Source: Mycobacterium pseudokansasii (GTDB taxonomy: Bacteria > Actinomycetota > Actinomycetes > Mycobacteriales > Mycobacteriaceae). Taken from it: a stretch of 64,000 bases of DNA. Position 1 is the first letter of the stretch. Each line of letters starts with the position of its first letter. The stretch covers positions 6,076,325 to 6,140,324 of the forward strand of contig NZ_UPHU01000001.1 of NCBI RefSeq assembly GCF_900566075.1, written 5' to 3'. A program made the position numbers and the translations under genes. Of this stretch, positions 54,251 through 56,475 are shown in pieces. The notes below the pieces were generated by a model. The model ran no database searches. It was given only the letters and a program-made list of their open reading frames with translations, and was not told the origin of the DNA.

Positions 54251-56206
54251 ATGCCGGGCGCCCGCAACGCGCTGGCCACCATTGGCCAGATGGCCTTGGC
54301 GGCGTTGGTCGCCGTCGTCGTCGCCGTGCTGTCACTGATCGCCGTCTCGCGGGTGGAGTGGCCGGCTTTCCCCTCGTCCAACCAGTTGCATGCGCTGACC
54401 ACCGTCGGTCAGGTCGGCTGTCTGGCCGGGCTGCTCGCCGTCGGCTGGGTGTGGCACTCCGGGCGGTTTCGCCGGCTGGCGCAGCTGGGTGGGCTGGTGC
54501 TGGTGTCGGCGTTCACCGTGGTGACGCTGGGCATGCCGCTGGGAGCCACCACGCTGTACCTATTCGGCGTCTCGGTCGACCAGCAGTTCCGCACCGAGTA
54601 CCTGACCCGGCTCGCCGACAGCCCCGCCCTGCAGGACATGACCTACCTGGGCCTGCCACCGTTCTACCCGCCTGGCTGGTTCTGGATCGGTGGGCGCGCC
54701 GCCGCGCTGACCGGCACACCCGCCTGGGAGATGTTCAAACCCTGGGCGATCACCTCGATCACCGTCGCTGTCGCGGTCGCGTTGGTGCTGTGGTGGCGGC
54801 TGATCCGCTTCGAGTACGCGCTGCTGGTCACCATCGCCACGGCGGCGGTGACGCTTGCCTACAGTTCGCCGGAGCCGTACGCCGCGATGATCACCGTGCT
54901 GCTGCCGCCGGTGCTGGTGCTGACCTGGTCGGGGTTGCGCGCCGGCGGCGGGCGCGAGCGTGACGCGACAGTCACGCCCGAAGCCGAGCGTGACGATGGC
55001 GTCACACGCGCCTTGACGCCGAAGACGGCGGGTTGGGCCGCCATCTTCGGCGCCGGCGTCTTCCTGGGCTTCGCGGCGACCTGGTACACGCTGCTATTCG
55101 CCTACAGCGCGTTCACTGTCGCGCTGATGGCGCTGCTGCTGGCCGGGTCCCGGTGGCGGCGGGGTGGCCTCGCGGCGGCCCTCGACCCGCTGCGGCGGCT
55201 GACCGTCATCGGCGTCATCGCGGCGGCCATCGGCTCCAGCACCTGGCTGCCTTATCTGCTGCGGGCGGCCCGCGACCCGGTCAGCAACACCGGCAGCGCC
55301 CAGCATTACCTGCCGGCCGACGGCGCCGAACTGACCTTCCCGATGCTGCAGTTCTCGCTGCTGGGCGCGCTGTGCCTGCTGGGCACGCTGTGGCTGGTGA
55401 TCCGGGCGCGGTCGTCGACCCGGGCCGGCGCGTTGGCCATCGGTGTGCTGGCCGTCTACCTGTGGTCGCTGCTGTCGATGCTGACCACGTTGGCGCGCAC
55501 CACGCTGCTGTCGTTTCGGCTGCAGCCGACGTTGACCGTACTGCTGGCCGCGGCGGGAGTGTTCGGCTTCGTCGAGGCGGCACAAGCGCTGGCCGTCCGG
55601 CGACACGCTGTGCTCCCGGTGGCCGGCGCGTTCGGGCTGGCCGGCGCCATCGCGTTCAGCCAGGACATTCCCGACGTGCTGCGGCCCGACCTGACCGTCG
55701 CCTACACCGACACCGACGGCCACGGCCAGCGCGGTGACCGGCGCCCGCCCGGCTCCGAGAAGTACTACCCGGTGGTCGACGCCGCCATCCGAAAGGTCAC
55801 CGGCAAACCGCGCGATCAGCTCGTGGTGCTTACCGCCGACTACAGCTTCCTGGCGTACTACCCCTATTGGGGGTTCCAGGGGTTGACGTCGCACTACGCC
55901 AACCCGCTGGCGCAGTTCGACAAGCGCGCCGCCCACATCGAGAGCTGGGCCAAGCTCAAGACCCCCGACGAGTTCGTCGCCGCCCTGGACAAGCTGCCCT
56001 GGCCGGCGCCGACGGTGTTTCTGATGCGCCGCGGCGCGGGTAATACCTACACCCTGCGGCTCGCCCAAGACGTCTACCCCAACCAGCCCAACGTTCGCCG
56101 CTACACGGTGGAGTTGAAGTCCGCCCTCTTCGCCGACCCGCGTTTCAACGTCGACACCATAGGCCCCTTCGTTCTGGCTATTCGCAAACCGGCGGCAGGT
56201 GCCTGA
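54251..56206 (+). CDS. aftA: Arabinofuranosyltransferase AftA
   Basis: A 651-residue GT-C enzyme with about eleven helices over the first 450 residues and an extracytoplasmic C-terminal domain. The early acidic loop lies in the segment after VSVDQQFRTEYLTRLAD. AftA puts the first arabinofuranose on galactan. It is several residues longer than I recall for the M. tuberculosis protein; the extra part is a polar stretch RERDATVTPEAERDDGVTR around residues 235-255, coded by two DNA hairpins (see findings). The stop TGA overlaps an ATG, the expected embC start. Confidence 0.94.
   Translation: MPGARNALATIGQMALAALVAVVVAVLSLIAVSRVEWPAFPSSNQLHALTTVGQVGCLAGLLAVGWVWHSGRFRRLAQLGGLVLVSAFTVVTLGMPLGATTLYLFGVSVDQQFRTEYLTRLADSPALQDMTYLGLPPFYPPGWFWIGGRAAALTGTPAWEMFKPWAITSITVAVAVALVLWWRLIRFEYALLVTIATAAVTLAYSSPEPYAAMITVLLPPVLVLTWSGLRAGGGRERDATVTPEAERDDGVTRALTPKTAGWAAIFGAGVFLGFAATWYTLLFAYSAFTVALMALLLAGSRWRRGGLAAALDPLRRLTVIGVIAAAIGSSTWLPYLLRAARDPVSNTGSAQHYLPADGAELTFPMLQFSLLGALCLLGTLWLVIRARSSTRAGALAIGVLAVYLWSLLSMLTTLARTTLLSFRLQPTLTVLLAAAGVFGFVEAAQALAVRRHAVLPVAGAFGLAGAIAFSQDIPDVLRPDLTVAYTDTDGHGQRGDRRPPGSEKYYPVVDAAIRKVTGKPRDQLVVLTADYSFLAYYPYWGFQGLTSHYANPLAQFDKRAAHIESWAKLKTPDEFVAALDKLPWPAPTVFLMRRGAGNTYTLRLAQDVYPNQPNVRRYTVELKSALFADPRFNVDTIGPFVLAIRKPAAGA
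54957..55008. repeat. Pair of small inverted repeats within aftA
   Basis: GCGTGAC-GCGACA-GTCACGC (54957-54976) is a perfect 7-bp inverted repeat, and 10 bases later GCGTGACGATGGCGTCACACGC (54987-55008) is a second imperfect one. Both lie in the coding region for the extra polar loop of AftA. Confidence 0.7.
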
Positions 56207-56247
56207 TGGCCACCGAAACCGCACCGGGCGCGCTGCACCCCGCCTGA
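56206..56247 (+). other. Expected embC start codon followed by a 13-residue peptide
   Basis: ATG at 56206-56208 overlaps the aftA stop (TGATG), exactly where embC should begin. It encodes MATETAPGALHPA and stops at TGA 56245-56247 in the first repeat unit. It is in the same frame as the long embC frame but is cut off by this stop and by a TAG at 56407. The peptide start MATETAP resembles the M. tuberculosis EmbC start MATEAAP. See the repeat and embC entries. Confidence 0.75.
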
Positions 56248-56460
56248 TCGCCGAACTCCTCAACGGGCCCACGCGGCCCGCATCGTCGTCCGGCCCGGCC
56301 TGATCGCCGAACTCCTCAACGGGCCCACGCGGCCCGCATCGTCGTCCGGCCCGGCCTGATCGCCGAACTCCTCAACGGGCCCACGCGGCCCGCATCGTCG
56401 TCCGGCTAGCCTGATCGCCGAACTCCTCAACGGGCCCACGCGGCCCGCATCGTCGTCCGG
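56245..56460 (+). repeat. 56-bp tandem repeat, four units, at the embC 5' end
   Basis: Units begin TGATCGCCGAACTCCTC at 56245, 56301, 56357 and 56412, giving spacings of 56, 56 and 55 bases. Units end CATCGTCGTCCGGC followed by CCGGCC (first two) or TAGCC (third). The last unit runs straight into the conserved embC coding sequence, as CGCATCGTCGTCCGGCTACC encodes RIVVRLP. The tandem therefore duplicates DNA that includes the embC N-terminus. Confidence 0.95.
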
Positions 56461-56475
56461 CTACCATCTACCTCC

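What the first reader, a model, noticed from the sequence alone, without database searches (positions are those of the whole stretch)
56206..56475. Tandem duplication separates the embC start codon from embC
The normal embC start (ATG overlapping the aftA stop, coding MATETAP) is followed in frame by a TGA at 56245 and a TAG at 56407. A 56-bp unit repeated four times (56, 56, 55) lies between it and the conserved RIVVRLPSTSVSDAG coding sequence. Because 56 and 55 are not multiples of three, copy number changes the frame. Translation must therefore restart, most simply at GTG 56476, giving an EmbC about 20 residues short before its first helix. This could tune embC expression or mark a phase-variable site.
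Basis: seen in the sequence. Interest (0 to 1): 0.75.

Follow-up and report, generated by a model that had tools for sequence, protein, structure and literature searches.

The report
Mobile hairpin repeats docked at promoters
The four repeats before this mycobacterial cell-wall gene are copies of a small hairpin-forming element scattered through many mycobacterial genomes, which here sits exactly against the gene's likely promoter and leaves a conserved start codon untouched.

Summary
Observation confirmed: four ~56-bp units (56238-56461) between the aftA-overlapping ATG and embC, with in-frame TGA 56245 and TAG 56407. The interpretation changes. (1) It is no duplication of embC: the unit is a dispersed element, 57 matches at E<=1 in this genome, in 24 of 37 same-genus and 0 of 24 other-genus genomes; 13 of 15 proposed base pairs show two-sided changes. 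(2) EmbC need not 'restart': TANNNT, 8 nt, in-frame GTG occurs in 79 of 80 assessed junctions, in codons rare in aftA. GTG 56476 is probably the conserved leaderless start; 13 of 80 lack an in-frame ATG. (3) The array ends exactly at the TA of that box. Elsewhere 22 of 60 arrays end at TANNNT, 21 with a start codon 5-9 nt below. At proS a 56-bp insertion lies between CTAG repeats, with two empty relatives. At embC insertion recurred (some inserts judged by eye). Best reading: a MIRU-like mobile hairpin element that docks at -10 boxes. Promoter activity, mobility and copy-number variation are untested; phase variation is not supported.

The parts
54251..56206 (+). aftA (arabinofuranosyltransferase), upstream gene; stop TGA 56204-56206
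56206..56208 (+). ATG overlapping the aftA stop; its frame ends at TGA 56245-56247
   Evidence: an in-frame ATG near the aftA stop is present in 67 of 80 assessed junctions
56238..56294 (+). element unit 1
   Evidence: R1 69.2 bits (used to build R1)
56295..56350 (+). element unit 2
   Evidence: R1 64.5 bits (used to build R1)
56351..56406 (+). element unit 3
   Evidence: R1 64.5 bits
56407..56461 (+). element unit 4, ending directly before the -10-like box
   Evidence: R1 61.6 bits (used to build R1)
56462..56467 (+). TACCAT, conserved TANNNT -10-like box of embC
   Evidence: 79 of 80 assessed junctions have TANNNT 8 nt before an in-frame GTG; rare-codon test
56476..56478 (+). GTG, proposed leaderless start (and transcription start) of embC
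   Evidence: rule for leaderless starts from PMC4633059 and PMC3898074 passages
56476..59697 (+). embC ORF, 1073 aa
   Evidence: match to solved EmbC chains 7bve and 7bvh

Best explanation
embC of this Mycobacterium kansasii-complex genome is, as in nearly all mycobacteria examined, read from its own leaderless promoter inside the aftA-embC junction: -10 box TACCAT (56462-56467), then 8 nt, then GTG 56476, where transcript and protein begin together. A ~56-bp mobile element of a dispersed hairpin family inserted at the TA that opens this box, leaving box and start intact, and was then amplified to four tandem units. The insertion separates the aftA-coupled ATG from embC but leaves the conserved start untouched. 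Shown: array, element family, covarying structure, exact abutment to TANNNT here and at many other genes, one insertion with CTAG on both sides at proS, recurrence at embC. Inferred: promoter activity and translation from GTG, mobility, amplification by slippage or recombination, any effect on embC level.
For: Array and units. Same element elsewhere: 57 matches at E<=1, 34 places, in the own genome; 24 of 25 chosen genomes; 24 of 37 genus genomes, own included, against 0 of 24 outside it. Structure: 13 of 15 pairs with two-sided changes, 86.1% of cells paired against 74.1% shuffled, 0 of 500 shuffles as high. Docking: TANNNT exactly at the 3' boundary in 8 of 27 own sites scored and within -1..+2 in 14 of 40 arrays from five other genomes; 22 of 35 boundary TAs are TANNNT against 70 of 472 intergenic TAs of the window. 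Insertion: proS site. Recurrence: 6 changes, 5 forced by starred branches.
Against: No expression data. The whole junction does not fold better than shuffles (z +1.48) and a single window unit hardly does (z -0.53; the other four units folded gave -0.62, -2.22, -3.60 and -2.34): the structure rests on covariation in the family, not on energy here. 18 of 60 arrays end at neither a -10 box nor a convergent stop codon. At embC no clean target duplication remains; the left junction has lost bases against relatives. A consensus scan finds no sigma-70-type promoter, though it requires a -35 hexamer. Four of the eight rows counted as carrying an insert at embC (L049, L052, L062, L009) were judged by eye.
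Confidence: 0.75

Rival explanations
1. One reading: a local tandem duplication broke embC's start and translation restarts at GTG; copy number shifts the frame and tunes or switches embC.
For: Units of 56 and 55 bp are not multiples of three and the ATG frame is closed by TGA 56245.
Against: The unit is a dispersed element; the GTG with its box is conserved in repeat-free species and lies downstream of the array, so copy number cannot change its frame.
Confidence: 0.06
2. A TA-targeting non-autonomous element (MITE-like) with no preference for promoters: in a GC-rich genome, TA survives mainly in -10 boxes and stop codons, and insertions in genes are lost.
For: TA at -1..+2 of the 3' end in 35 of 60 arrays; 20 of 60 end within 15 offsets of a stop codon of a convergent frame open for 80 codons or more; CTAG on both sides at proS.
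Against: Boundary TAs are TANNNT in 22 of 35 against 70 of 472 intergenic TAs (each TA read on both strands), and have RTG 6-8 nt below in 20 of 35 against 17 of 472 (gene calls rough, sites partly orthologous). TANNNT plus RTG at 7 of 20 own 3' ends and at 0 of 20 5' ends.
Confidence: 0.35
3. The array is kept because it acts: hairpins in read-through RNA from aftA, or protein binding just upstream of the -10, insulate or regulate embC.
For: Stems are conserved by compensatory change; at promoters the element's 3' end faces the box; repeat length and gene expression have been linked, with mixed values between strains, for VNTR3239 before fpg (PMC2734929 passages).
Against: 4 of 5 kansasii-complex relatives seen lack it at embC; no U-tract terminator; stems could be kept for mobility instead.
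Confidence: 0.25
4. Assembly artefact in the unit number.
For: Near-identical tandem units are hard to assemble; no reads available here.
Against: M. gastri has one unit and M. asiaticum 1165133.8 about six at the same place; the assembly has only 2 contigs. Only the count, not the insertion, could be wrong.
Confidence: 0.05

Closest known systems
MIRU (mycobacterial interspersed repetitive units; Supply 1997 recalled and not held; passages in PMC12548453, PMC2734929, PMC4128351)
   Same: Short dispersed mycobacterial repeats, often in tandem between genes. Published M. avium subsp. paratuberculosis MIRU292 scores 11.8 bits with the element profile against at most 4.6 for 500 shuffles; a weak own-genome hit of model R1 (L161, 24.8 bits) shares 37 letters in a row with MIRU292.
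   Different: MIRUs are described as inserted at start codons with a coupled ORF or lying within 5' UTRs; this element ends at the -10 box, upstream of the likely start of transcription, and has a covarying two-stem structure.
VNTR25 of M. avium subsp. paratuberculosis (58-bp unit, PMC7977185 Table 1)
   Same: By eye the same layout; weak profile score 5.1 bits against shuffle maximum 3.9.
   Different: A typing marker; its place relative to a promoter was not examined here.
Leaderless promoters of mycobacteria (PMC3898074, PMC4633059 passages)
   Same: TANNNT shortly before an ATG or GTG that is the first codon.
   Different: Here the box is abutted by a repeat array; the start site itself is not mapped.
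REP elements and MITEs (recalled)
   Same: Small, hairpin-forming, dispersed, apparently non-autonomous; TA in the target.
   Different: No transposase was sought; the stem begins 8-10 nt inside the 5' end but right at the 3' end, so the ends are not symmetric.

Membership tests
MIRU | dispersed short tandem repeats between mycobacterial genes | tested here: met
   57 own-genome matches at E<=1; genus-wide
MIRU | insertion at a start codon with a MIRU ORF coupled to the gene (PMC12548453 passage) | tested here: not met
   at embC the last unit ends 14 nt before GTG, directly before TANNNT; 22 of 60 other arrays end at TANNNT
MIRU | no dyad symmetry (recalled from Supply 1997, not read) | tested here: not met
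   two stems with two-sided changes in 13 of 15 pairs
MIRU | sequence similarity to MIRU units | tested here: inconclusive
   MIRU292 11.8 bits, E 0.066, shuffle maximum 4.6 (single-base shuffles, 38 of 500 gave any hit); R1 also finds a MIRU292-like place, L161, but weakly (E 0.042)
VNTR locus | copy number differs between isolates of one species | not testable with these tools
   one genome per species in the genomes searched; only differences between species seen
Leaderless gene | TANNNT centred 7-12 bp before the start of transcription, RTG as first codon | tested here: inconclusive
   sequence fits in 79 of 80 junctions; transcription start not mapped
MITE with target duplication | direct repeat of the target on both sides of a clean insertion | tested here: met
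   at proS only: 56 bp inserted, CTAG on both sides, two empty relatives; at embC not seen
MITE with target duplication | terminal inverted repeats and a related transposase | not tested
   outer stem begins 8-10 nt inside the 5' end (alignment A1); no transposase search made
Rfam family | match to a described RNA family | tested here: not met
   0 matches at E 1 or better in window 55000-58000; only this stretch was searched

The most novel reading that the evidence does not exclude
A promoter-homing mobile element: its insertion is guided to the upstream edge of the melted -10 region (TA of TANNNT) of active, mostly leaderless promoters, in one orientation, so that it spreads one shared hairpin-bearing upstream segment to many genes (in this genome embC, proS, ffh, a CDP-alcohol phosphatidyltransferase, glgA by recall, a thiolase) without damaging their start sites.
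Probability: 0.3. Interest if true: 0.85.

Novelty: new variant of a known kind. Interest (0 to 1): 0.6.

Why it matters
Mycobacterial tandem repeats are widely used for strain typing but their biology is poorly understood. A structured element that lands exactly at -10 boxes of leaderless genes gives a testable rule for where such repeats sit and why they are tolerated. It also indicates that the start of EmbC, a drug target, is probably the conserved GTG rather than the upstream ATG, so the N-terminus and promoter of embC should be checked across the genus.

Tried and rejected
Rejected: local duplication of embC (dispersed element); frame-based phase variation (start lies downstream); intrinsic terminator; an Rfam family; extra folding stability of the junction (z +1.48). 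Species name: the first 20,000 bases of the 117-kb second contig matched 10 plasmid records, none over 80% of the query and the best over 35% (records of the own genome may be left out there), so only 'kansasii complex' is claimed, from AftA identity and the tree. Ten library searches were seen as listings, with passages opened in some papers; in these I saw no description of an element ending at -10 boxes, of an embC repeat or of a leaderless embC. Supply 1997 is not held and is cited from recall; a start-site reannotation paper is not held either. The M. kansasii VNTR paper PMC5849605 was searched for passages only: its main text does not name embC, and its primer table is in a supplement that could not be read, so this array may already be among its 24 loci. 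Alignment A2 used wrong coordinates for two rows and was not used; the script alignment replaced it. In one search the automatic alignment of the window with M. persicum was poor, so that comparison rests on the sequences printed. One search missed loci on the minus strand; redid them. Early scripts with too narrow patterns placed only some junctions (33 of 110; 50 of 81) and were replaced.

Full report
What is there. The array is real: four units, 56238-56461, spacing 56, 56, 55. The ATG at 56206 overlaps the aftA stop; its frame closes at TGA 56245 and meets TAG 56407. GTG 56476, in the same frame, lies 14 nt beyond the last unit.

Which organism. The genome is 6.43 Mb in 2 contigs. The AftA query matched M. 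persicum at 94%, M. innocens at 93%, M. gastri and M. ostraviense at 92% (best segments), and the aftA+embC tree puts the window among these species. I call it Mycobacterium kansasii complex; the exact species is not settled.

The start of embC. I compared 81 aftA-embC junctions (80 named loci, the best 80 of 224 kept, plus the window). One, L087, is cut off before embC. Of the 80 assessed, 79 carry, in the embC frame, TANNNT, exactly 8 nt and then GTG; the exception is L077, a metagenome-assembled genome. In 67 of 80 an in-frame ATG also lies near the aftA stop; the 13 without one are the window, L038, L045, L051, L052, L062, L068, L070, L085, L103, L105, L108 and L114, so the ATG is dispensable. 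Among 29 unnamed same-genus genomes (L008-L036, partly the same species) 26 show the box at 8 nt; the sequences printed show 7 nt in L027 and L029 and no box in L033. The box overlaps codons that are very rare in the last 500 codons of aftA: CTA or TTA at its first codon in 78 of 79 (2.4% of Leu codons) and TCT at its third in 71 of 79 (1.0% of Ser codons). That points to selection on DNA rather than protein. These species are related, so the binomial values are not probabilities. Published passages say that TANNNT centred 7-12 bp upstream was found for 73% of primary M. [quoted passage not shown] Neither main text names embC in my term searches. The solved EmbC chain 7bve has 7 residues before the stretch aligned to our residue 4, consistent with a start near this GTG; 7bvh has 20, and I did not see whether tags are included.

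The repeat unit. The array with short flanks hits other places in the same genome at 69-80% identity and many in other mycobacteria. Aligning 32 distinct units from 17 places, the window included, gives a 7-bp outer stem that closes at the 3' end of the unit, a 7 x 7 internal loop of conserved sequence and an inner stem of up to 8 bp. Thirteen of 15 pairs have two-sided changes; cells paired 86.1% against 74.1% in shuffles and at most 40.1% when slid; no shuffle of 500 reached any of the five measures. I wrote the structure after seeing the folds of five units and the units are related, which favours it; the slid controls keep relatedness. Energies are mixed: window unit z -0.53, others -0.62, -2.22, -3.60, -2.34; whole junction as DNA z +1.48.

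Distribution. A covariance model (R1) finds 57 matches at E 1 or better, at 34 places, in the own genome (only 150 of 16350 candidates were scored, so this is a lower bound), matches in 24 of 25 chosen genomes (3 in M. leprae, 0 in Mycolicibacillus trivialis), and, in a sample of 61, in 24 of 37 same-genus genomes (own included) and 0 of 24 of other genera (stricter filters). No Rfam family matches in 55000-58000.

Where the units end. I noticed the pattern on the arrays used for the model and then tested it on others; the model itself holds no flank. In the own genome 27 of the 34 places were scored, embC included (four partial matches fetched were dropped and three low matches not fetched; of the dropped, L164 also shows TAGGCT and ATG just below). 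TANNNT begins exactly at the boundary in 8 of 27, all among the 21 with 30 bits or more; the rate in the flanks is 28 of 16,200 positions. Four of these own places had given units to the model. For replication I took the 40 arrays visible in the capped list for five genomes (G029, G026, G064, G067, G070), leaving out eight arrays already used for the model; four of the five genomes had given other units to it, and the 20 other genomes of that call were not sampled. TANNNT lies within -1..+2 in 14 of 40, 13 of them with an ORF starting ATG or GTG 6-8 nt below. For 20 own sites without embC plus these 40: 22 of 60 end at TANNNT (21 with RTG 5-9 nt below), 20 near the stop codon of a convergent frame open for 80 codons or more (15 offsets allowed), 18 at neither; TA lies at -1..+2 in 35. 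The stop-codon class has no good control: at 150 codons it is 6 of 20 own 3' ends against 3 of 20 5' ends with more offsets. Several sites are orthologous between genomes, so the 60 are not independent. As a yardstick for plain TA targeting, 70 of 472 intergenic TA readings of the window are TANNNT and 17 have RTG 6-8 nt below (rough gene calls, each TA read on both strands), against 22 and 20 of the 35 boundary TAs. At 5' ends, TANNNT with RTG occurs in 0 of 20 own sites although 25 offsets were allowed, against 7 of 20 at 3' ends; TANNNT alone 2 against 8. Pfam identifies genes below own sites as class II aminoacyl-tRNA synthetase with editing domain (L141, proS by recall), CDP-alcohol phosphatidyltransferase (L145), SRP54 GTPase (L150, ffh by recall), Ppx/GppA phosphatase (L162), glycosyltransferase (L164) and thiolase (L137); L156 has no hit (6 of 7 tested). 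Other gene names are recalled.

Evidence for insertion. At proS the own genome has 56 bp more than M. persicum and M. ostraviense, with CTAG on both sides; the empty sites keep TAGGCT, 8 nt and GTG. At ffh, proS and the phosphatidyltransferase gene the box and start are also seen in species without the unit. At embC, M. persicum, M. innocens, M. ostraviense and M. attenuatum lack it, M. gastri has one unit, M. asiaticum 1165133.8 about six, M. asiaticum 1245139.5 a short piece with CTA on both sides (18 nt longer than its relative), and M. leprae, M. lepromatosis, M. uberis and G029 carry longer inserts at the same place; that these last four are family members is by eye only. On a tree of 51 junctions (49 of the 80 named loci, L037-L086 without L077; the window; L009 of G029), built without the junction itself, the insert label needs 6 changes, 5 of them forced by starred branches; label shuffles gave a mean of 7.6 and 26 of 500 as low, so the label is mildly clustered (quick method, no bootstrap). 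Gains cannot be told from losses, and fewer changes would remain if the four inserts judged by eye were something else.

Relation to known repeats. PMC12548453 (passage) describes MIRUs as inserting at start codons with a coupled ORF. PMC4128351 (passages) reports 17 of 24 typing MIRU loci in M. bovis 5' UTRs and a gene leaderless in M. marinum whose M. bovis ortholog has a 77-nt leader made of a MIRU. Here the element stops short of the promoter box. The published M. avium subsp. paratuberculosis units MIRU292 and VNTR25 (PMC7977185 Table 1) score 11.8 and 5.1 bits with the element profile against shuffle maxima of 4.6 and 3.9; two other units of that table give no hit. One weak own-genome hit of the model (L161) shares 37 letters in a row with MIRU292. 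So the element is probably a relation of MIRUs, but it fails two of their features as I know them (one read in a passage, one recalled), and I do not file it as a MIRU.

How it most likely works. embC keeps its own leaderless promoter. The element landed at the TA of the -10 box, where the box and the start survive, and then multiplied upstream, where nothing needed for translating EmbC is lost except the coupled ATG. Whether landing is guided to melted promoters, or any TA is hit and only harmless hits survive, is open; the excess over intergenic TA sites and the one-sided orientation favour guidance or selection, but both tests are coarse. An effect on embC expression is possible and untested.

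Verdict. Observation confirmed; interpretation partly right on the start, wrong on duplication and, most likely, on phase variation. The wider finding, a structured dispersed element abutting -10 boxes of leaderless genes in many species of the genus, is the more interesting result.

Noticed in passing
window 59907-63881: A PE_PGRS-like ORF (named by recall) of 1324 codons follows embC directly; in 9 of 9 relatives tested only the end of embC matched window 59600-60600, so this neighbour may be special to the lineage (about 700 bases beyond embC held per relative, low-complexity filter on).
   Followed up: partly
window 10629-10687 (+): A weak further match to the element model (25.5 bits).
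   Followed up: no
window 15805-15971: Another tandem repeat, 20-bp unit x 8.3, 97% matches; L119 1-140 holds a different 20-bp repeat beside an element array.
   Followed up: no
L229 (M. attenuatum), upstream of the ffh-like gene: A different tandem hairpin-like repeat with other stem letters also ends directly before TAGGCT, as if another family used the same place (by eye).
   Followed up: no
L081 (M. celatum), just after the embC GTG: Extra bases resembling a MIRU core lie after the GTG start, so embC may have taken repeats on both sides of its start in different species (by eye).
   Followed up: no
20 of 60 arrays, such as L175, L149, L190: The 3' end of the element lies at or near the stop codon of a convergent gene, so the hairpin would follow that gene's stop in its mRNA (weak control).
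   Followed up: partly
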